From a virus: a stretch of 20,607 bases of DNA. The notes under the pieces are model-generated. The model searched no databases. It worked only from the letters and a program-made list of their open reading frames with translations, and had not been told where the DNA came from. Shown in pieces: positions 1 to 19,818 of this stretch; position 1 is the first letter of the stretch, and each line of letters starts with the position of its first letter. The stretch is taken from positions 1 to 20,607 of the IMG/VR virus record IMGVR_UViG_3300034073_000991, one strand, 5' to 3'. Made by a program: the position numbers and the translations under genes.

Positions 1-132
1 TTTATGAGGCAGTGGAAGATACTCAAGCAACCCTACCCGTGGAAAGACCCCAAGGTGCTAGCCGAACGCAAGCGTATCGCAGCACTCGATAGAGCACGTA
101 TTGAACTCAGACTAAATGGAGGTGTCGAATGA
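1..132 (+). CDS. C-terminal part (or all) of a small hypothetical protein
   Basis: Frame 1 is open from the window edge to TGA at 130-132. It encodes a short, basic, charged stretch beginning FMRQWKILKQP and ending RLNGGVE. An ATG at position 4 could make a complete 42-residue protein, but the open frame reaches the edge, so it may be the tail of a longer gene. The stop overlaps the next start (ATGA), which shows translational coupling. I do not recognise a family. Confidence 0.6.
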   Translation, partial: FMRQWKILKQPYPWKDPKVLAERKRIAALDRARIELRLNGGVE

Positions 133-974
133 CTATCATGACAAGTACTCTACCCACGGCTCCCCGTGCGGACGCAACATCAAACATGCACCCGATTCAA
201 AAATTAACAAAAGATCTCAAGGCAGCAGCGACCAAGTTGTCTGACGACGAGGCAAGGTTTCTTGTTGATTACTACTACATCTGTCAAGAAGATAGGAAGC
301 GTAGTACAAATCAAGTACGCGCACTGGATGAGTCTAATGAACCCAATGCCGTTTTAGGTTGGCTTGCCGAACAATCAGAAAATCTTGAGGGACAGATAAA
401 GAAAGCACTCGATGTATACACTGAAGCGCATGTTATGGGTGCGTGGATGCGGCAGATTGTCGGCATCGGTCCTGTTATTAGTGCAGGTTTGTTAGCACAT
501 ATTGATATTACCAAGGCACCCACGGTCGGGCATATCTGGAGGTATGCAGGGCTTGATCCCACAAGCAAATGGGAGAAAGGTGAGAAGCGCCCTTGGAACG
601 CAGGGTTGAAGACGTTGTGTTGGAAAGCAGGGCAGAGCTTTATGAAGTTCAGTGGGCGTGATGACTGCTACTATGGGCATGTGTACCGAGAGCGTAAAGC
701 GTATGAGATCGCACGTAATGAGCGAGGCGATAACAAAGACTTGGCAACGAGTCTTCTTAGTAAATATAACAAGAGCACCGAAGCATACAAACATCTTAGC
801 AATGGTGTGCTGCCTCCTGCACAGATTGACGCACGGGCTAGACGTTATGCCGTGAAGCTTTTCTTATCTCATCTGCATGGTGCGTGGTATGAGACACACT
901 TTGGCACGAAGCCCCCACTGCCTTACCCAATTGCACATATGGGGCATGTGCATGTTATTCCATCACCTGTTTAA
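129..974 (+). CDS. IS110-transposase C-terminal-like (helix-hairpin-helix) phage protein
   Basis: This is a 281-residue protein. ATG 129 is preceded by a strong GGAGGTG ribosome site and overlaps the previous stop; in-frame ATGs at 138 and 186 are alternatives. Residues 110-172 resemble the Transposase_20 (IS116/IS110/IS902) C-terminal module. A helix-hairpin-helix-like GIGPVISAGLLAHI is followed by WRYAGLDP and a basic stretch GEKRPWNAGLKTLCWKAGQSF. The N-terminal 100 residues look helical and charged (QEDRKRSTNQV, NLEGQIKKALDV), and I cannot see the RuvC-like DEDD catalytic domain of true IS110 transposases. It is therefore more likely a DNA- or nucleic-acid-binding protein than an active transposase. 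The gene stops 11 nt before the 36-nt-period array. Function is inferred from fold resemblance only. Confidence 0.7.
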   Translation: MTIMTSTLPTAPRADATSNMHPIQKLTKDLKAAATKLSDDEARFLVDYYYICQEDRKRSTNQVRALDESNEPNAVLGWLAEQSENLEGQIKKALDVYTEAHVMGAWMRQIVGIGPVISAGLLAHIDITKAPTVGHIWRYAGLDPTSKWEKGEKRPWNAGLKTLCWKAGQSFMKFSGRDDCYYGHVYRERKAYEIARNERGDNKDLATSLLSKYNKSTEAYKHLSNGVLPPAQIDARARRYAVKLFLSHLHGAWYETHFGTKPPLPYPIAHMGHVHVIPSPV

Positions 975-985
975 CCAAGGTCACG

Positions 986-1626
986 GAGAGAACCAAAGAA
1001 ATTGAGTGAGTCACTCCGTTTGAGAGAACCATTCAAAGCGAACGAGTCACTAGATCGGAGAGAACCAATGAGTAAGAACGAGTCGTAAGAACCGAGAGAA
1101 CCATTCTTGAAGAACGAACCATGGATCGCGAGAGAACCAGTTCGCATGAGTGAGTCAAAAGGAGTAAGAGAACCACACTTTGCGAACGAGTCATTATTGG
1201 CAAGAGAACCACTCAGGAAGAGCGAGTCAAAGAGCAAAAGAGAACCATGGACAGAGAACGAGTCACGAGCATCGATAGAACCAAGGATGTCGAACGAGTC
1301 AGCGAGCAGGAGAGAACCATACGCCGTAAACGAGTCATGGTCCCAGAGAAACCCAAAAATCCAGAGCGAGTCACATGAGCTAAGAGCACCGTCGTCGTGG
1401 AACGAGTCACTACTTTAGAGAGAACCAACCCATAAGAACGAGTCACAAAACCAGAAGAGAACCATCCAAGACGAACGAGTCAGGAAAATTGAGAGAGCCG
1501 TGTGTACTGAACGAGTCAATGTAGGAGAGAGAACCAAATCTCCAGAACGAGTCATAGGAAGTGAGAGAACCACAGAATCTAAACGAGTCAAGTTCGACGA
1601 GAGAACCATCCAAGACGAACGTACAC
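986..1626. repeat. Alternating A/B 10-nt repeat array with 8-nt variable spacers
   Basis: This is the only long gene-free stretch in the window (975-1644). Motif A, GAGAGAACCA (A1 at 986-995), alternates strictly with motif B, GAACGAGTCA (B2 at 1040-1049). There are 18 A units and 17 B units, plus a final partial B at 1617-1626 that decays to GAACGTACAC. Units start every 18 nt, giving a 36-nt A-B period. Of the 35 spacers, 34 are exactly 8 nt; one, at 1446-1454, is 9 nt. Spacers are all different except 1465-1472 and 1609-1616 (both TCCAAGAC). A and B agree at 6 of 10 positions (GA..GA..CA), suggesting a common 18-nt ancestor; B4 at 1112-1121 is the hybrid GAACGAACCA. Stops in spacers (TAA 1086-1088, TAG 1416-1418) and the 19-nt step break every repeat-encoded frame, so it does not look coding. 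Function is unknown: a protein-binding array, origin-like iterons or a repetitive RNA are possible. Confidence 0.93.
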
Positions 1627-1644: not shown

Positions 1645-1887
1645 ATGAATGACAACGTCAATCACCCCAAACATTACACGAACCACCCTTCAGGGGTGGA
1701 GGCTATTGAGATCACCGAGCACTTTAATTTCAATAAAGGTAACGCTATAAAATATATCTGGCGCAGTGCAGACAAAGGTAAAGAAGTTGAGGATCTACGC
1801 AAGGCACGTTGGTATATCGACCGTGAGATTGCACGGATACTGAACAACGAGGATGAACCCCCCTTCATGAAGAGGAGTGAGGAATGA
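1645..1887 (+). CDS. DUF3310 family protein
   Basis: This 80-residue protein has the DUF3310 pattern: VNHPKHYTNHPSGVEAIEI at the N-terminus, then NFNKGNAIKYIWRSADKG, then EDLRKARWYIDREI. DUF3310 proteins are small and very common in phage early regions. Some databases call them nucleotide kinase-like, but no activity is established from sequence here. AAGGAAC lies shortly before the ATG. It is the first gene after the repeat array and starts the run of ATGA-coupled small genes, so any regulation by the array would act on it first. Confidence 0.9.
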   Translation: MNDNVNHPKHYTNHPSGVEAIEITEHFNFNKGNAIKYIWRSADKGKEVEDLRKARWYIDREIARILNNEDEPPFMKRSEE

Positions 1888-7167: not shown

Positions 7168-9582
7168 ATGCAGATAGTCGCTAACAAAGCCCTGCTCCTG
7201 AAGGTCAGGCAACCGAACCGGATCACAACGGTCATACCAAAGAGCAAGATCTTAGACAGTGGGGAGGTGCTAGTTAAGTGGGGGCTGGAGGAAGCACAAG
7301 TCCTCAAGAACCTGCGAATCAAAAACGTCCCGTCCCCCATCACTGCACAGTACGATTGGCCTGGATTACACAAACCGTTTGCACATCAACGCACAACGGC
7401 AGAGTTCTTAACGTTGCACCGACGAGGCTTTTGCTTTAACGAGCAGGGTACGGGCAAGACTGGCAGTGTTATCTGGGCAGCGGACTACCTGATGAAGATC
7501 GGCATGATCCGTAGAGTTCTTGTGCTGTGTCCCCTGTCCATCATGCAGTCAGCATGGGTGAATGATCTATTTAAATTTGCTATGCACCGCACAGTGACGG
7601 TGGCTCACAGCTACGACAGAAAGAAACGCATCGAGGCAGTGAACACAGACTCTGACTTTGTGATCTGTAACTTCGATGGTCTAGAAATTATCAAGGATGC
7701 GATCAACCAAAACGACTTCGATCTAATCGTGGTTGATGAGTGTTTTGTTGCCGGTACTTTGGTAGGCACCCCTCTTGGAAGACGCCCTATCGAACAGCTT
7801 GAGGCGGGGGATAAAGTATTGACTTCTGATGGAGTAATGCGTATAAAAAGACTTGTACGTAACACTACCAAACAATTAGTCGAGGTCAAACTTGGAAACG
7901 GAAAAACAATACGCTGCACTCCAGAACACCCTTTCTTTACGGATGTCGGATGGGTCTGTGCCAAAAATCTTACGGGCAGACGGCTTATATCTGGTGTTGA
8001 GTTGTCCTGTGTGCGAGCAGGAATATCGACAGATACGGTCTCGGTTCGTATGGGGTATGAAAAACAACCTACCAACTGGATTGACCTGCTCAAAATCCTG
8101 CGCTCGGAAGAGGTGGCACTTAGCGAATCCCAACAAGAGCGTGTTTTACAACATGCCGCCAGAGCAACGGGGGAGACCATCAGGACCGAAGACCGCAGCA
8201 CATCGAGCGAAGTTATCGGAGGTGGCGAAAATCAAGGGACACAAACCGCCAATACGGAAGGGCAATGGTACGGGAATGACATCAACAGAGTTGTTGATTT
8301 CCGAGGTTTTACCTGCGGGGTGGGTATGGAACTTCCCAGTAGCGTTGGGGAAGAGGCAGCAAGGTTTTCCTACGAACTACAAGCTCGATTTTGCTTGGCC
8401 TCATCGCAAGATAGGGTTGGAGGTGGATGGAAACAGTCACACAGCGGCGATACGACAAATGCAAGACCAGAAGAAAGAAACGAAGTTAATGACGCTTGGG
8501 TGGAAAGTGTTTCGTATATCGAATGCCCAAGCGGTGAAACTGTCTACAACATCGAAGTTGAAGGAACACCTAACTATTTTATTGGGGATCATTGGTTAGT
8601 ACATAACTGCAACGCATATAAAACAGTGAGTACAAAAAGATGGAAGGCACTTCAATCAATCATCAAAGCAGATACATGGATCTGGATGTTAACGGGCACA
8701 CCCGCAGCACAGGCACCCACAGACGCATACGGATTAGCAAGGATCATCAATCCTTCTGGCGTACCACGCTTCTTTGGTTCGTTCAAAGACCAAGTGATGC
8801 AAAAGATAACGAACTTCAAGTGGGTGCCTAAGCCCCGCGCCGAAGACATCGTGCACCAAGTGCTACAGCCCGCTATCAGATTTACCAAAGAGCAGTGCTT
8901 AGACTTACCGGACATGACCTATGTGACTAGAGATGTGCCTCTAACCAAACAGCAGTTGCAGTATTACGAGCACATACGCAAGCACATGAGTACGATAGCA
9001 GCGGGTGAAGAAATCACAACAGTCAATGCCGCAGCCAACCTGAACAAACTTCTGCAATTATCTTGTGGTGCGGTGTATTCAGACAGTGGTGAGGTAGTGT
9101 CGTTTGATGCGTCTAACCGTGTCGAGGCACTCAAAGAAGTGATTGATGAGGCAAGTCACAAGGTGATTGTTTTTGTACCGTATCGACATGCCATACATCT
9201 TGTTAATGAAGAGCTTACCAAGTCGGGCTATTCCTGCGAGATTGTGAACGGTGAAGTTAGTGTCAACAAACGTACTGATATCTTTAATCGATTTCAAACG
9301 CAACCTGACCCCAAGGTGCTTATCATTCAACCGCAAGCAGCATCGCACGGTGTCACACTTCACGCAGCGAACGTTGTGATCTATTGGTCTCCAGTGATGT
9401 CTGTAGAAACTTATTTACAGGCGAACGCACGAGTGCATCGAGCGGGCCAACGTAACCCATGCACGGTGGTGCACCTTCAAGGCTCGCCGGTAGAGAGAAA
9501 GATGTATGCCATGCTCCAATCCAAAGTGGACATTCACACGAGATTGGTTGACCTTTACGATAACCTTATGAAGGAGAGTTGA
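7168..9582 (+). CDS. SNF2-family DEAD-like helicase containing an intein
   Basis: The gene encodes 804 residues; removal of the 289-residue intein would leave a 515-residue helicase. Extein motifs are the Q-like region LHKPFAHQRTTAEF, Walker A EQGTGKTG (Lys97), and motif Ia LVLCPLSIMQSAW. Motif II is VVDE|CNAYK, split by the intein. Motif III is WMLTGTPA, and motifs V-VI are QAASHGVTLHAANVVIYW and ARVHRAGQ (Arg755, Arg758). This is a phage SNF2/SSL2-type ATPase acting on double-stranded DNA, probably in replication or repair. Protein splicing is required to rebuild motif II, so unspliced precursor should lack ATPase activity. The gap before it holds a stem-loop and a GGAGAGTGAAA motif; the likely promoter of the next unit overlaps its stop. 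Confidence 0.95.
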   Translation: MQIVANKALLLKVRQPNRITTVIPKSKILDSGEVLVKWGLEEAQVLKNLRIKNVPSPITAQYDWPGLHKPFAHQRTTAEFLTLHRRGFCFNEQGTGKTGSVIWAADYLMKIGMIRRVLVLCPLSIMQSAWVNDLFKFAMHRTVTVAHSYDRKKRIEAVNTDSDFVICNFDGLEIIKDAINQNDFDLIVVDECFVAGTLVGTPLGRRPIEQLEAGDKVLTSDGVMRIKRLVRNTTKQLVEVKLGNGKTIRCTPEHPFFTDVGWVCAKNLTGRRLISGVELSCVRAGISTDTVSVRMGYEKQPTNWIDLLKILRSEEVALSESQQERVLQHAARATGETIRTEDRSTSSEVIGGGENQGTQTANTEGQWYGNDINRVVDFRGFTCGVGMELPSSVGEEAARFSYELQARFCLASSQDRVGGGWKQSHSGDTTNARPEERNEVNDAWVESVSYIECPSGETVYNIEVEGTPNYFIGDHWLVHNCNAYKTVSTKRWKALQSIIKADTWIWMLTGTPAAQAPTDAYGLARIINPSGVPRFFGSFKDQVMQKITNFKWVPKPRAEDIVHQVLQPAIRFTKEQCLDLPDMTYVTRDVPLTKQQLQYYEHIRKHMSTIAAGEEITTVNAAANLNKLLQLSCGAVYSDSGEVVSFDASNRVEALKEVIDEASHKVIVFVPYRHAIHLVNEELTKSGYSCEIVNGEVSVNKRTDIFNRFQTQPDPKVLIIQPQAASHGVTLHAANVVIYWSPVMSVETYLQANARVHRAGQRNPCTVVHLQGSPVERKMYAMLQSKVDIHTRLVDLYDNLMKES
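7741..8607 (+). mobile_element. Intein inserted in helicase motif II (DExx box)
   Basis: This intein spans residues 192-480 of the host protein, 289 in all. Block A starts with Cys (CFVAGTLVGTPLGRRPIE) and continues LEAGDKVLTSDG. Block B is GNGKTIRCTPEHPFF (intein Thr60 and His63). Block F is ETVYNIEVEGTPNYFI, and block G ends HWLVHN before extein Cys481. All residues needed for class 1 splicing are present: Cys1, the TxxH of block B, the penultimate His and last Asn, and the +1 Cys. Between blocks B and F the in-frame sequence is a long, polar, low-complexity stretch (e.g. EVIGGGENQGTQTANTEG) with no LAGLIDADG or HNH motif. That stretch is overprinted by an endonuclease ORF in the +1 frame. 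Confidence 0.95.
7892..8599 (+). CDS. Vsr-like (EDxHD) homing endonuclease overprinted on the intein in the +1 frame
   Basis: This 235-codon ORF lies wholly inside the intein but in the +1 frame. It starts inside block B and ends 8 nt before the intein end, so its C-terminus overlaps block F. The protein looks real. A Cys cluster CPVC (38, 41) with CSKSC (66, 70) suggests a zinc-binding DNA-recognition module, followed by a basic linker (AHRAKLSEVAKIKGHKPP). A Vsr/DUF559-type PD-(D/E)XK core then has TELLISEVL (Glu133), YKLDFAW (Asp166), IGLEVDGNSH (Glu177, Asp179, His183), QDQKKETK (Asp192) and TLGWKVFRISN. The start is uncertain: TTG 7892 has GAGG at 7882-7885, and ATG 7943 would give 218 residues. 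Its inferred role is homing of the intein to empty helicase alleles. Confidence 0.85.
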   Translation: METEKQYAALQNTLSLRMSDGSVPKILRADGLYLVLSCPVCEQEYRQIRSRFVWGMKNNLPTGLTCSKSCARKRWHLANPNKSVFYNMPPEQRGRPSGPKTAAHRAKLSEVAKIKGHKPPIRKGNGTGMTSTELLISEVLPAGWVWNFPVALGKRQQGFPTNYKLDFAWPHRKIGLEVDGNSHTAAIRQMQDQKKETKLMTLGWKVFRISNAQAVKLSTTSKLKEHLTILLGIIG

Positions 9583-14085: not shown

Positions 14086-14111
14086 CCCCGGCCCTCTGCC
14101 GGGGTTTTTTT
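14086..14111 (+). terminator. Rho-independent terminator
   Basis: CCCCGGC (14086-14092), loop CCTCT, GCCGGGG (14098-14104), then seven T. This is a textbook terminator for the rightward replication operon. On the - strand the hairpin is not followed by T, so it ends only + transcription. Its T-tract overlaps the stop codon of the convergent gene. Confidence 0.93.
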
Positions 14112-17100
14112 AAAGTCCTGCTACTTCTTTGCGTAACGCTGGAATGTTGTAGGCACGGAGTAACTCATTCTCCGTCCGCTCAATCTCATCCAACTGATCT
14201 TTCTTCTGGGCACCCGTCATGGTTGGGTCGTTAGAGATTAGCTTGCGGAAAGCCCGCATCTTCTCCAACTGTTGATCGATCTGGTTCATGGACCGCCGCA
14301 AGGCAAGCAGATTGATACGGTCATCGTTCAGGTATTCCTGCAACTCTTCCGCACGTCCTTGAGCCTTCAACCCGTTCATGGTGTAGACCACCTGCTCAAC
14401 TTTCTCCCGCAGATCGTAGTACTGCTCTTTGTATCCGCCTGGGATCTTGTCATACATAAACGTCTTAAAGGCAGGCATCTCATACAGCCGCTTGTCGGGC
14501 CTATCAGTGAACAACATGTTCGACAGATCCAGCACCGTGCCACCTGCAATACCTGTAGTGCCTCGCACAAAATACTCAAGCTTCATCGGGGAGATGCCAG
14601 CCAGACCGCCAATCATCTTTGCAATCTCAGAGGTCGAGTCTGTGAACTGCTGTGCAGGTTCTAACTTCTCCAGCCCCCGTCCAACTATCGGTGTGCCTGT
14701 GAAGAACGAGTAGTTCACCAGCAACTCAAGCGCAGGCTTGACAGCTTGAGGTGTCAAGTTAGGTCCACTAAACGCATCAAATGCAGCGGTGCCAATAGCC
14801 TTGCGGAGTGCCGCCGCATCCTGTGGACGCTCGGTGCCTTGACTAGCAACGTAGTTATACAAACGCTCAGGTATAACTTTGAAGAAGAATCCAACTTCAG
14901 GAGCAACTGGTATCTTTACTCCTGTCCCCGGCACGATAAAGTTTTTGTCCTTCTCGTAATCACGCAGCCCTTCGTACTCATCATCACCACCTATCAACAT
15001 CGTGTAGATCGTGGCAAGCGTGGCAAGCTTCACACCCGTACCAAGGAACATCTTAAAGGCTTCGCTACGTTCGGTAGCTGCAACCCCACGTCCGGTCATC
15101 GTGCGGTAGAACACATCCATACCCTGGATGTAAGCGTTCATAAACGGAATGAGTTGGCGCATTAGACCCACCGTCCGGTTTGCACCTTGCCGTTTGAAGT
15201 TGATAACTTCTTGAGCGCGATACCGTGCAAGCAGCACGTCACCATCTGGGAACTGCGGCGACTTAGTTTCTTCTAACGTCTGCTCAAAGACTGCCTTACG
15301 TAACGAGGCATCAGAGGCAATGGAGAACGACTCCATGAACGACAGCCCCTTCTCAAGCACAGACCGCTGCCGAATCCCAAACTCTTTCTCGATCTCATCC
15401 TTGGCACGTCCGGGCATCAGGTCATACGCACCCACAATCCCAAACTTCTCAAGCTGCTGTGTCGTGGCATCTCCACGGTACGCACCCACTGCACCTGTCA
15501 AGACCTTGGCAGCAACTTCAAACGGATTCTTCACGCCTGATGTCACCGTGGCGCGATACGCATCTTGGAATAACTGACTTGCTGCGAACTGAGGAGTAGC
15601 TGTGGTCGTGCGCCGTAAGATGTTAGCGAACGCAGTGAAGCTGCTGAGGATCGGACCCCCCATGCTTTCCACACCCTTGAACGCATAAACATCTGCTATC
15701 GACGAATATTCATAGACTTCAGGCTTACCGTCGCGGTAGATATAGATTGTCTTGTTGGGATCAACTCCAGGCTGTCCTTGGCGTACCTGCCGCGCACCTA
15801 ACCCGTTGGACACAAATGCGTCAGTAAGTTGCACCGCAGCATGGTTACGGATAGCACCGTTAACAAGCCAGAAAGACAAGCCCACCATGTTGTCAAAGAT
15901 GTCGTTGATCTCGTCGGTGCCGCCTCGGATCTCTTTCATCTGCTTGAGGTTGGTCAGCCCACGGAAGTACGCTTGAGGACTTGTAGCGATCTTGTCCTCA
16001 TAATCTTTGATACGGTTCCACGGCACGTAGTCCGCAGCTTCTTTCCACTCGGCAGCTTGCTCTTTACTGAAGCGCCCTGCATCGACACCTGCATCGATTA
16101 AGTTGTTCTTGAACGTGGTGAACTCTTTGAACGCAGCCTCTAACTCGGGGAAGTCCTTGAAGGCTTGCATACCTGCTTTGATCTTTGCATCATCGGGCAG
16201 GCCAGAGATACCCAGTTGTGGGTGCTGTTTGAAGTAGTTCGCACGACGAGCAATGAACGCATCGTTTGCTAATTTAAACGCAAGCTGCTGATCGCCTAGC
16301 TTAGTGCCAAGCTCCTTGATCTTATCGATAACACCTTGGAAGGAAGCGGTGCCCTTCTCTGCAACCCAGCCCACCTTCGGATCAAGCTTTAACTTACCAT
16401 CCTTCATCACGGCAACAGCCATCGTATCGGCATGTTCCGCAGCAGTCATAAACACATCAGGACGAATGTTACCTAACGCGTCACGGATCTTACCGTTGTA
16501 CTGGTTGAGCATGGCGAGCTTCGACTCAGCAGCCGCACCCTTGTACGCCACCTGCACACGGAACTTATCGATCTGATCTTGGCGATACGATGGGTCTTGG
16601 AAGAACGCTCCAACTTTCTGAAGCGTAGACATCTGCGGACCCTTGGGCTTGGCATTTGTTATACCTGCCATAGCAGCTACCGCTGCTTGTGCTTGCTGCC
16701 CCGCAGGAGTGAGCGCGAAAAGCTGCCCAGTACCAACAGACGCAGCCTCTACCCCAGGCTGTGTTAGCTCGCCGTAAATGGTAAGAAGTTCAGTTAGCGC
16801 GTTGTCGTTCTTTAGACCAAGAAGTTTTGCAACGTACTCAGTGAACTTGTCCCAAGCAGTTGTGTTCTGATATTCGATACGCGATAGCTCGTACTGGAAC
16901 TTAGGGTTACTAATACCCTCTGCAATAAATTCTTGGATGCTAGCCACACCGTAAGGCGGACGATAAAAATCTGAATCTTCGTTTGCCGCTTGTTTTTTGT
17001 AATGTCGTTTAACGTGCTCGTATAGCTGGTTAAGCCGCTGCACGGTTGGGCGCTGCGCTGGCTTTGGGTTGGCAACTATGTTGGAAACTTGGGCGTGCAC

Positions 17101-19818
17101 AATCTCATGTGCCAGAACGCGCTCATCATTAGATTTATAGTCACTAACCTTAATCGTGTCAGACTTAACGTCGTACAACCCGCTAACACCTGACTGAGGA
17201 AACGCTACCGCAGTTGACGTGAGTCGTATCTTGTTCTCATCTATATTTTTTGTTGCACGTTCTATCGCGTCCCGTAGGTTTAAGAAGTCCTCTTTAGTAC
17301 GTAACTTTGCACCGCTTTGTAACCCTAAAGGCGCAAACATAGAGTTGTTGTTATCGACAATCGTCCGCAACCCATACTTACTTGTAGCTTCGCCGTCTTC
17401 GTAGGCTTGAATATTTGACCCCAACACTTCGTCTGGGAGGACTGCACCGTTTGGCAACTTCTCTATCTGTGGCGCAACCTGCCGAATGTAGTCAAGCGCA
17501 CCGAGGTGCATCTTTGCGCTGTCAATCGAGAGCTGACGGGACGTGTACTTCTCGTCTTTATAACTTTCAAACGCACCCTCAGAAACTTCAATCTTTGTCT
17601 TTAGATTTCTAGCGAGTTTAGCTACTTGCTGAACGACAGGATTTTTACTCTTTTCAAGCGCATCAAGAACGCCAGAGAAACTGCCCTGCTGCACAGCTTT
17701 TCCTGCCTGCTGATTTTTGCGAGGGCGTAATTGCTCCTCATAAGTAGCACCGATACCTTTACTAAACGCGGCTCGCTGCTGTATTTCTGTTAATGGACGG
17801 GGCTGTTTTCCTTCTGCCACATCACGTGGCTCAGTGCGTAGTGCAGGTTCGCCCACTCCAGTTGCGACAGGTGCTTCAGGTCCGGGGGCAGCAGCGGCAG
17901 CTCCTTGGTCAGGTACAGGAACGCTTGGCTGACTTGCTCCGGCGACAGGTTGCTCAGGTTGTTTGACATCCTCATCTCTCCTTGGAGCTAACGGTAACTC
18001 CATCTGTTCTAAGAAGATAGAATTCTCTAAAAAGCTGTTAACTTTTTGAGTTATCGCAGGGCTTCGATTGGGGTTACTAGCATATGCCTCAAGACGCTCT
18101 TTTACGAACCTACGGTCTTCAGAGTTGGCAAGATCTTTACCCAGTATCTCTTCACGTAACTTCTTGTTAGTTGCGCCGATACCCATCGTACGAAAGTCCT
18201 GCTCTGTTACAGGACGAGTTTCCGGTGCAGCAGGTTGCTCCTGCACTTTCATCTTAGGTTGTTCAATATCCGTACGCTGAAGCGTTAATGGAAACCTAGT
18301 TACCTTTTGCTGTGATAGGTCTAACGCAGGGGTGGGCTTAGCTGCTTCCTCTTGATACTGTTCACGCTCTAAAAACTTAACCCGCATCATGTCCGCTTGG
18401 GTTACGGGTTCTCCTGCTGCGATCTTGTCACGAATACCTTGCACACGCTGTTCTTCCAGCATGCGTTGTTGCTGCTCGTTCAGACGTGGAGCTGCGGCTT
18501 CCTCACCAATCACGGTCCCTGTATCTGGCCGGTACTCAGTTTTAGCAACTTGCCCAACACGATCACCGATACTAGGTAACGGAGCTTCAAAATCTAATTG
18601 TGGTTCTCCAGTGCCAGGACGTGCACCTTCTGCTGCACCTAGCGTACCTTTTACAGCCTCGATCTGAGTTTTTAATTCGTTGAGCGGTTTTGAAAGTGCT
18701 ACGGCTTGGTCGTAGATCTGCTGTTTTTTAACAGGATCAGTCTCACGCTGAAACGCTGCTGCAAGTCTTTCGTTCTCTCGCTGATAAAGATCAAATTCAT
18801 CTCTTAACTTAAACAGACGGTCCTGAGCCTCACGTGTTGATTGTGCGGTGCGCTGAATGTTTTCTTCTGTAAAGAGGTCTTGCTGTGTAGCAGTCTCTGG
18901 TACACCGCGTACGGGGGCAAATGTTGTAGGTGCAGCAGGTTGCGTAACCGCTGCCGTAGTTGCTTGTTCTTCTACCGCAGGGGTAGTGGGTTGTGCAGGT
19001 GTAGCCGCAGTTTTAGCTCTACGTCCAAGTGCAACATCCAAAAGACCTTGCGCCAACGCGCCAACCGCACCACCATACGCAGCCTGTTCGCCTAATCCTT
19101 CGATAAGTTCTTGTTCAGGTTTATAAATACCACGAGCAATTAAGTTCTGTGCTAATCCAGCAGCAGCTTCTTGTGCAGCTTCTTCACCGCCAGCCATAGC
19201 AACCCGCTTAATACGATTAGCCGCAGTCAGCACTTCCCCTTCAGGGATACGCGATAGGATTCTGAACGGGGCAAACAACTCAGATAAACCGACGACCGCA
19301 CCTAGTCCTGTGGCGATGGACTGCTGGCTTGGGGTTGCACCTTCTTGTTGGGCCTTAGTTAAAGCTTCCCCTGATCCCGCACCGACAGCCAACGATCCAG
19401 CACCAACACGACCTGCAACACCAAGGGCACCGAGACCAAAGAACGGTCCAAACGAACCTACCGCTTCACCAAACTTACGACCTACCGATTCTTCGTACCC
19501 TGCTTCAGGTGCAAATGGTTTCTTCGCTGCGGCAGCAACCCCACGAATAGCTTCCTGTGCACCAGCTTCGTACTGGTCAGGTAATAGCGCAGACGCACCA
19601 ACGGCAGCTTGCTCAACAAGCCCAATCGCTCCAGGCACTACACCCTTGACGGCTTCCTTGAGTTGTCCGCCAATCGTTGGACCTTCGACGATACTTTTAA
19701 ATTGCGGGGGAGTAAGCCCTTCAGATCTAAGATACCCATCAATATCAAACTCAGGGGCACCCTGCGAGATCATCTTTCTTACATTACGGATGACCCTGTC
19801 GTAACGGCCTTCAGCCAT
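14110..19818 (-). CDS. Giant polyvalent internal virion-type protein (zincin motif, LPD38-like region)
   Basis: This 1902-residue protein starts at ATG 19818 behind AGGGGGC. In order: an Ala/Gly-rich N-terminus with several hydrophobic segments (about 58-80, 120-150, 175-190); a long Pro/Gln/Glu/Ala-rich linker (about 270-700); a zincin-type peptidase motif LAHEIVHAQ (His904, Glu905, His908) with a possible third ligand in IQEFIAEG (Glu963); and a long helical region, about 1080-1640. The last contains RDYEKDKNFIVPGTGVKIPVAPE, here as RDYEKDKNFIVPG and KIPVAPEVGF, typical of the large polyvalent protein associated domain LPD38, with a hydrophobic stretch just before it (VKLATLATIYTMLIGG). Such proteins are packaged in podovirus-like heads and ejected with the DNA to help entry. 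The peptidase role is inferred from the motif. No lytic transglycosylase motif is visible. Confidence 0.85.
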   Translation of the reverse strand: MAEGRYDRVIRNVRKMISQGAPEFDIDGYLRSEGLTPPQFKSIVEGPTIGGQLKEAVKGVVPGAIGLVEQAAVGASALLPDQYEAGAQEAIRGVAAAAKKPFAPEAGYEESVGRKFGEAVGSFGPFFGLGALGVAGRVGAGSLAVGAGSGEALTKAQQEGATPSQQSIATGLGAVVGLSELFAPFRILSRIPEGEVLTAANRIKRVAMAGGEEAAQEAAAGLAQNLIARGIYKPEQELIEGLGEQAAYGGAVGALAQGLLDVALGRRAKTAATPAQPTTPAVEEQATTAAVTQPAAPTTFAPVRGVPETATQQDLFTEENIQRTAQSTREAQDRLFKLRDEFDLYQRENERLAAAFQRETDPVKKQQIYDQAVALSKPLNELKTQIEAVKGTLGAAEGARPGTGEPQLDFEAPLPSIGDRVGQVAKTEYRPDTGTVIGEEAAAPRLNEQQQRMLEEQRVQGIRDKIAAGEPVTQADMMRVKFLEREQYQEEAAKPTPALDLSQQKVTRFPLTLQRTDIEQPKMKVQEQPAAPETRPVTEQDFRTMGIGATNKKLREEILGKDLANSEDRRFVKERLEAYASNPNRSPAITQKVNSFLENSIFLEQMELPLAPRRDEDVKQPEQPVAGASQPSVPVPDQGAAAAAPGPEAPVATGVGEPALRTEPRDVAEGKQPRPLTEIQQRAAFSKGIGATYEEQLRPRKNQQAGKAVQQGSFSGVLDALEKSKNPVVQQVAKLARNLKTKIEVSEGAFESYKDEKYTSRQLSIDSAKMHLGALDYIRQVAPQIEKLPNGAVLPDEVLGSNIQAYEDGEATSKYGLRTIVDNNNSMFAPLGLQSGAKLRTKEDFLNLRDAIERATKNIDENKIRLTSTAVAFPQSGVSGLYDVKSDTIKVSDYKSNDERVLAHEIVHAQVSNIVANPKPAQRPTVQRLNQLYEHVKRHYKKQAANEDSDFYRPPYGVASIQEFIAEGISNPKFQYELSRIEYQNTTAWDKFTEYVAKLLGLKNDNALTELLTIYGELTQPGVEAASVGTGQLFALTPAGQQAQAAVAAMAGITNAKPKGPQMSTLQKVGAFFQDPSYRQDQIDKFRVQVAYKGAAAESKLAMLNQYNGKIRDALGNIRPDVFMTAAEHADTMAVAVMKDGKLKLDPKVGWVAEKGTASFQGVIDKIKELGTKLGDQQLAFKLANDAFIARRANYFKQHPQLGISGLPDDAKIKAGMQAFKDFPELEAAFKEFTTFKNNLIDAGVDAGRFSKEQAAEWKEAADYVPWNRIKDYEDKIATSPQAYFRGLTNLKQMKEIRGGTDEINDIFDNMVGLSFWLVNGAIRNHAAVQLTDAFVSNGLGARQVRQGQPGVDPNKTIYIYRDGKPEVYEYSSIADVYAFKGVESMGGPILSSFTAFANILRRTTTATPQFAASQLFQDAYRATVTSGVKNPFEVAAKVLTGAVGAYRGDATTQQLEKFGIVGAYDLMPGRAKDEIEKEFGIRQRSVLEKGLSFMESFSIASDASLRKAVFEQTLEETKSPQFPDGDVLLARYRAQEVINFKRQGANRTVGLMRQLIPFMNAYIQGMDVFYRTMTGRGVAATERSEAFKMFLGTGVKLATLATIYTMLIGGDDEYEGLRDYEKDKNFIVPGTGVKIPVAPEVGFFFKVIPERLYNYVASQGTERPQDAAALRKAIGTAAFDAFSGPNLTPQAVKPALELLVNYSFFTGTPIVGRGLEKLEPAQQFTDSTSEIAKMIGGLAGISPMKLEYFVRGTTGIAGGTVLDLSNMLFTDRPDKRLYEMPAFKTFMYDKIPGGYKEQYYDLREKVEQVVYTMNGLKAQGRAEELQEYLNDDRINLLALRRSMNQIDQQLEKMRAFRKLISNDPTMTGAQKKDQLDEIERTENELLRAYNIPALRKEVAGL

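What the first reader, a model, noticed from the sequence alone, without database searches (positions are those of the whole stretch)
986..1626. Alternating two-motif array with 8-nt hypervariable spacers in fixed phase
Seen directly: motif A (GAGAGAACCA) and motif B (GAACGAGTCA) alternate strictly, 18 A and 17 full B units, with 34 of 35 spacers exactly 8 nt and almost all different. Duplication alone would copy spacers as well. Conserved 10-mers between unrelated 8-mers at constant spacing imply selection on motif sequence and phase, not on spacer sequence, or active spacer replacement. It is not CRISPR (units far too short), not a simple tandem repeat, and not coding. The 18-nt step is about 1.7 helical turns, which does not put neighbours on one DNA face, so a wrapped DNA-protein complex or an RNA scaffold with regularly placed single-stranded sites is possible. 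I know of no named element with this layout.
Basis: partly seen in the sequence, partly recalled or inferred. Interest (0 to 1): 0.88.

Follow-up and report, generated by a model that had tools for sequence, protein, structure and literature searches.

The report
Phage TIGR guide-RNA array with TasA
The alternating-motif array is a known but recently described kind of RNA-guide array (TIGR-Tas, 2025) that sits directly behind its partner gene tasA in a tailed-phage genome; it probably makes 18 short two-part guide RNAs that lead a nuclease-free protein to specific DNA, but what it targets in nature is still unknown.

Summary
Window 973-1621 holds 18 loop repeats (GAGAGAACCA) alternating with 17 full edge repeats (GAACGAGTCA), plus a truncated edge repeat at each end; 34 of 35 spacers are 8 nt. 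The interpretation "no named element" is wrong: this is a dual-repeat TIGR array, and the gene whose stop codon touches it (129-974) is its Tas protein. NCBIfam's TIGR-Tas model scores 220 bits (cut-off 100), and the predicted fold's best PDB matches are TasH and TasR complexes. It has no HNH or RuvC domain, so it is the TasA type. Spacing and repeats resemble the experimentally studied Salicola phage CGphi29 array. 133 of 143 distinct relatives also carry 36-nt-period arrays. Across 2,741 distinct spacer pairs, units are inherited as whole pairs, swapped-order pairs exceed chance, and spacer position 4, inside the seed known for TasR, varies least: signs that the guides function. No targets were found in the relatives' own genomes; searches elsewhere were inconclusive. 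New member of a known kind; the natural target remains the open question. In passing: an intein in the same genome with a hidden endonuclease in another reading frame.

The parts
129..974 (+). tasA: nuclease-free Nop-domain (Tas) protein, 281 aa, effector of the array
   Evidence: NCBIfam NF052498.1 TIGR_Tas_endo 220 bits, cut-off 100; profile hits 9mty TasR 1e-19 and 21kl TasH 1e-13; AF2 model pLDDT 86, Foldseek best hits TasH/TasR complexes; no HNH or RuvC in Pfam
973..1621 (+). TIGR array, 18 units (17 x 36 nt + 1 x 37 nt), same strand as tasA
968..977 (+). 5' truncated edge repeat (TGTTTAACCA; box-C half ACCA at 974-977), overlaps the tasA stop codon 972-974
   Evidence: sequence; same lead TGTTTAACC[AG] at the array start in the closely related loci
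986..1608 (+). 18 loop repeats GAGAGAACCA (first 986-995, last 1599-1608), normally every 36 nt; A at position 2 and CC at positions 8-9 invariant
1004..1590 (+). 17 full edge repeats GAACGAGTCA (first 1004-1013, last 1581-1590); A at position 2, GA at positions 5-6 and C at position 9 invariant
1446..1454 (+). the only 9-nt spacer (spacer A of unit CAAAACCAG/TCCAAGAC), shared with three relatives
1009..1044 (+). example of a predicted 36-nt tigRNA: AGTCA - spacer A CTCCGTTT - loop - spacer B TTCAAAGC - GAACG (processing site inferred from the published systems)
   Evidence: sequence plus processing rule of PMC12045711
1617..1621 (+). 3' truncated edge repeat GAACG, end of array; no terminator follows
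1645..1887 (+). DUF3310 gene, starts 23 nt after the array on the same strand (likely same transcript)

Best explanation
It is a dual-repeat TIGR array with its TasA effector. Inferred by homology to the published systems: the array is transcribed with tasA, cut in the middle of each edge repeat into 18 tigRNAs of 36 nt, and each tigRNA (edge half, spacer A, loop repeat, spacer B, edge half) is bound by a TasA dimer through the box C/D-like ends of the repeats (GA...CA). The two 8-nt spacers then pair in tandem with opposite strands of a dsDNA target of about 16-18 bp. As this TasA has no nuclease, the most likely effect is binding and bending of the target, blocking transcription or replication of a competing mobile element. 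That last step is the least certain (about 0.5); identity as TIGR-TasA is close to certain (about 0.97).
For: Array anatomy matches the published definition: two alternating 8-12-nt repeats, 8-9-nt spacers, 36-nt units, truncated edge repeats at both ends. Curated TIGR-Tas model 220 bits (cut-off 100) for the adjacent protein; fold and profile matches to TasH/TasR and, weaker, IS110. The Salicola phage CGphi29 array, where 36-nt RNAs and cleavage were shown for TasH, has similar repeats (edge AAGCGAGCCA, loop AAGACAACCA) and 8-nt spacers. 133 of 143 distinct relatives carry 36-nt-period arrays in the same locus. Both spacers of a unit are inherited together (182 related pairs with 1-2 differences against 4 in shuffles), and spacer position 4 is least variable (8 variable columns, 25 expected; binomial P 3e-5 at family threshold 2, 0.03 at 1, 0.004 at 3), within seed positions 4-5 derived from the TasR cleavage rule. 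Order-swapped pairs: 8 (5 independent) with up to 2 mismatches against 1.2 expected, in line with A and B being interchangeable.
Against: No transcript or processing data. No terminator after the array, which is typical in published loci. Predicted seed position 5 is not less variable than average. No natural target found, so the effect on the target is inference.
Confidence: 0.92

Rival explanations
1. Same system, other job: TasA and its guides regulate the phage's own genes or those of close relatives (self-regulation).
For: No nuclease, so self-targeting would not be lethal; the array is co-directional with the replication genes downstream.
Against: In the relatives' own genomes and flanks (about 2.7 Mb) exact and 1-mismatch matches to 1,522 distinct spacer pairs are no more frequent in the published geometry than in three control geometries (earlier set).
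Confidence: 0.08
2. Same system, other job: the guides place TasA on DNA to help integration or segregation (the published TasA-ParB operons and the 180-degree DNA bend suggest this).
For: ParB-like partners are reported for some TasA loci (PMC12045711).
Against: In the identical virus L070/L029 the upstream neighbours shown by ORF listing include no evident ParB-like gene (by eye, not profile-searched).
Confidence: 0.1
3. Array of protein binding sites on DNA (iterons, packaging or origin signals), not a guide array.
For: Regular spacing of short conserved motifs in a non-coding gap between genes.
Against: Spacers travel in fixed A-B pairs between phages and show position-dependent conservation; the neighbour is a curated TIGR-Tas protein; the same layout lies beside tas genes in 133 of 143 relatives.
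Confidence: 0.01
4. Protein-coding repeats (the 18-nt step is 6 codons, giving REPxxxNESxxx on the + strand).
For: One + frame is open for 103 codons.
Against: The frame is broken by stop codons and by the conserved 9-nt spacer at 1446-1454; stretches of several frames are open because the motifs themselves lack stops.
Confidence: 0.01

Closest known systems
SpTIGR-TasH of Salicola phage CGphi29 (HQ634153)
   Same: 8-nt spacers, 36-nt unit, edge AAGCGAGCCA and loop AAGACAACCA against GAACGAGTCA and GAGAGAACCA here; Nop-domain protein beside the array
   Different: TasH has an N-terminal HNH nuclease and a terminator-like hairpin behind its array; the window protein and array have neither
FpTIGR-TasA of Flavonifractor plautii (PMC12045711)
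   Same: Solo Nop-domain effector without nuclease; shown to bind 36-nt tigRNAs
   Different: 18 nt of variable sequence per tigRNA in FpTIGR against 16 nt here; sequences not compared directly
TaTIGR-TasR (PDB 9mty)
   Same: Nop fold and array logic
   Different: RuvC nuclease, 9-nt spacers, UG...CCA ends of repeats
IS110-family transposases with bridge RNA
   Same: Related Tnp20/Nop RNA-binding domain, cause of the 'transposase' labels
   Different: No DEDD catalytic domain found; NCBIfam IS110 model 24 bits against cut-off 140
CRISPR arrays
   Same: Repeat-spacer guide array
   Different: Two alternating 10-nt repeats with 8-nt spacers; no cas gene among the window proteins searched

Membership tests
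TIGR-Tas, dual-repeat array | Two distinct alternating repeats of 8-12 nt | tested here: met
   18 loop and 17 edge repeats of 10 nt in strict alternation
TIGR-Tas, dual-repeat array | Short variable spacers of fixed length (9 nt, 8 nt in SpTIGR) and 36-nt units | tested here: met
   34 of 35 spacers 8 nt; 17 of 18 units 36 nt
TIGR-Tas, dual-repeat array | Array starts and ends with truncated edge repeats | tested here: met
   ACCA at 974-977 and GAACG at 1617-1621
TIGR-Tas, dual-repeat array | Rho-independent terminator after the array (typical, not universal) | tested here: not met
   No + strand terminator-like site after 1621 in 1-2400; the array runs into a gene 23 nt on
[quoted passage not shown]
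   Both repeats start GA and end CA, with A2 and C9 invariant; in relatives the ends covary, e.g. both end CCC
TIGR-Tas, dual-repeat array | Adjacent Nop-domain Tas protein | tested here: met
   NF052498.1 220 bits, cut-off 100; Foldseek TasH/TasR E 3e-7 to 2e-6
TasA subtype | No HNH or RuvC nuclease domain | tested here: met
   Pfam finds only Transposase_20; residues 1-18 low confidence, first helix at residue 28
TIGR-Tas | Processing to 36-nt tigRNAs bound by Tas | not testable with these tools
   needs RNA-seq
TIGR-Tas | Tandem-spacer recognition of opposite DNA strands | tested here: inconclusive
   Swapped-order pairs (5 independent against 1.2 expected) and low variability at spacer position 4 fit; the shift-overlap test was not significant and no targets were found
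IS110 transposase | DEDD catalytic domain and full-length IS110 model | tested here: not met
   24 bits against cut-off 140, only residues 52-146 matched
CRISPR-Cas | Single repeat type of about 25-36 nt and cas genes | tested here: not met

The most novel reading that the evidence does not exclude
Nuclease-free TIGR-TasA arrays of phages are repeatedly filled with spacer pairs from shared external DNA targets, in either order, and these guides are kept under selection with a seed at spacer position 4. That would be the first sign, from natural sequence alone, that TasA guides work in nature and that units can be acquired more than once from the same site.
Probability: 0.3. Interest if true: 0.65.

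Novelty: new member of a known kind. Interest (0 to 1): 0.38.

Why it matters
TIGR-Tas is a young family (2025) in which natural targets, spacer origin and the role of the nuclease-free TasA are all open questions. This window is one of hundreds of related phage loci (344 stretches in one scan) whose arrays can be compared unit by unit. Such comparison already shows whole-pair inheritance, whole-unit gain and loss, swapped pairs and a conserved spacer position, and it argues against targets in the phages' own genomes.

Tried and rejected
Targets in own and related phages: none above controls. IMG/VR scans for two widely shared units, spacer A + 0-2 nt + reverse complement of spacer B: 35 and 13 stretches, many clustering by homology, and no stretch had exact or 1-mismatch hits to other units above control level once variants of the same unit were set aside. 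A composite 19-nt target built from three units of one family: 2 hits with unrelated flanks, about the chance level. Units of the Propionivibrio and Halomonas arrays in 151 and 90 related genomes: no match. Overlapping (shifted) target sites: looked promising in 681 pairs and I first noted a 2-nt gap between half-sites, but with 1,522 and 2,741 pairs it did not exceed shuffles; withdrawn. Codon-phase periodicity of spacer drift: not significant. Coding, tRNA and Rfam explanations: none. PADLOC: no hit.

Full report
WHAT IS THERE. Parsing the sequence gives 18 loop repeats (consensus GAGAGAACCA, 10 exact) and 17 full edge repeats (GAACGAGTCA, 9 exact) in strict alternation, with 34 spacers of 8 nt and one of 9 nt. 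A truncated edge repeat (ACCA, 974-977) precedes the first loop repeat and overlaps the stop codon of the upstream gene; another (GAACG, 1617-1621) ends the array. So 973-1621 is 18 units, 17 of 36 nt and one of 37 nt. Spacers are as different from each other as random sequence (mean identity 0.251, expected 0.256). Chance is excluded (17 matches against 0 in 100 shuffles).

WHAT IT IS. The gene at 129-974 (281 aa) is labelled transposase by PHROGs and weakly by Pfam, but NCBIfam's curated TIGR-Tas model scores 220 bits against a cut-off of 100, while the IS110 model scores 24 against 140. Sequence profiles find TasR (9mty, 1e-19) and TasH (21kl, 1e-13) first among solved structures. An AlphaFold2 model (mean pLDDT 86) matches TasH and TasR RNA-DNA complexes best, then the IS621 bridge-RNA recombinase. 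Faure et al. 2025 (PMC12045711) define TIGR arrays as two alternating 8-12-nt repeats with short spacers, 36-nt units and truncated edge repeats at the ends, beside a Nop-domain Tas protein. All of these are met. The protein lacks a nuclease domain, so it is of the TasA type; the 'endonuclease' in the NCBIfam name does not apply to it. One typical feature is missing: a terminator after the array. The array runs into a DUF3310 gene 23 nt further on.

CLOSEST RELATIVES. Salicola phage CGphi29, the source of the studied TasH, has an array with edge AAGCGAGCCA and loop AAGACAACCA and 8-nt spacers. Microcystis phage Mvi-JY20 has a Tas relative followed by a similar array. A scan of IMG/VR with an alignment of the family found 344 stretches that encode relatives. 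Of 143 distinct Tas sequences in the loci fetched, 133 have a 36-nt-period array in the same locus; most are 260-300 aa, and the few longer ones that were printed show no obvious nuclease domain by eye. Repeats vary between loci but keep GA at the start and usually CA at the end of both repeats, and the ends covary (both CCC in L096-L098), as expected for box D and box C binding a symmetric dimer. Cellular loci include Halomonas sp. NO4, Candidatus Propionivibrio aalborgensis (same repeats as the window) and Acidobacteriaceae.

HOW THE ARRAYS EVOLVE. The virus in IMG/VR contig 3300035670_005509 (L029/L070) carries the identical TasA and array. Among phages with TasA 95-96% identical, the window shares only 1-3 of its 17 scored units exactly, while L031 and L052 share 15 and L040 and L022 share 13. 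Differences are whole 36-nt units gained, lost or duplicated, plus point changes, mostly transitions. Across 2,741 distinct spacer pairs from 423 arrays, units related by 1-2 differences number 182 against about 4 when A and B are shuffled, so the two spacers of a unit are inherited as a pair. Eight unit pairs (five independent) carry the same two spacers in swapped order with at most two mismatches, against 1.2 expected. For example AGAAGCCC/TATCACGA in L013, L014, L022 and others corresponds to TATCACGA/GGAAGCCC in L019. As A and B are functionally interchangeable in TasR, this is what independent acquisition of one target site in both orientations would leave. Within families of related units, spacer position 4 is the least variable (8 variable columns, 25 expected; P 3e-5, 0.03 and 0.004 at family thresholds 2, 1 and 3). 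From the published TasR cleavage rule the seed is expected at positions 4-5; position 5 does not stand out here, so I count this as suggestive.

TARGETS. None was identified. Searches of about 2.7 Mb of the relatives' own DNA with 1,522 pairs gave the same number of hits in the published geometry as in three control geometries, which argues against self-targeting at near-full complementarity. Database-wide scans for a few shared units returned chance-level hits, and related host genomes gave none. A 16-nt split target is too short to be recognised in tens of gigabases from single units. I withdrew an early inference of a fixed 2-nt gap between half-sites, because the shift test failed on the larger sets.

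MECHANISM. Shown here: anatomy, gene association, predicted fold, inheritance pattern. Inferred from the published systems: transcription, cutting into 18 tigRNAs of 36 nt, binding by a TasA dimer, and pairing of the two spacers with opposite strands of about 16-18 bp. Inferred with least support: that binding without cleavage blocks a competing mobile element. Self-regulation is made less likely; a role in integration or partition remains possible.

VERDICT. A clear, well-formed member of a known family, TIGR-TasA. The find itself is no longer surprising, but the family's targets and acquisition are open, and the comparative signals reported here (swapped pairs, position 4) are testable.

IN PASSING. 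The SNF2-like helicase gene (7168-9582) contains an intein (about 7741-8610) whose DNA also encodes, in the +1 frame, a DUF559-type endonuclease (7892-8599). The same pair of overlapping frames occurs in L079/L244 and in L030, and the 98%-identical helicase of L023 lacks the intein. The nearest precedent found is the ShiLan insertion with a hidden HNH endonuclease, which has no splicing domains (PMC11855218).

Noticed in passing
window 7741-8610 (intein in the helicase gene 7168-9582) and 7892-8599: An intein whose DNA also encodes a DUF559/Vsr-like endonuclease in the +1 reading frame over about 700 nt; both frames have relatives (28-35% identity) in L079/L244 and L030, and L023 has a 98% identical helicase without the intein. 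A hidden homing endonuclease inside a true intein; the precedent ShiLan (PMC11855218) has no splicing domains.
   Followed up: partly
L286 (Tas gene): A TasA relative interrupted by an apparent intein (707-aa reading frame with Hint-like sequence between two halves of the Nop domain).
   Followed up: no
L107/L108, L111, L118: Several TIGR arrays in one phage genome, some kilobases away from tas and on either strand.
   Followed up: no
L033, L148, L150, L048, L039: Tas proteins with an extra stretch of some tens of residues at the same place, after the GLDPT..W motif.
   Followed up: no
NCBIfam NF052498.1 match on window 129-974: The curated model named 'TIGR-Tas system RNA-guided endonuclease' also matches nuclease-free TasA, so automatic annotation will call these proteins endonucleases.
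   Followed up: yes
window 14110-19818 (-): A 1902-aa protein with a metalloprotease-like HEIVH motif, possibly a giant virion protein.
   Followed up: no
window 1509-1562: Two neighbouring units (ATGTAGGA/AATCTCCA and TAGGAAGT/CAGAATCT) would match the same target shifted by 3 nt; about 0.15 such pairs are expected within all arrays, so possibly chance.
   Followed up: partly
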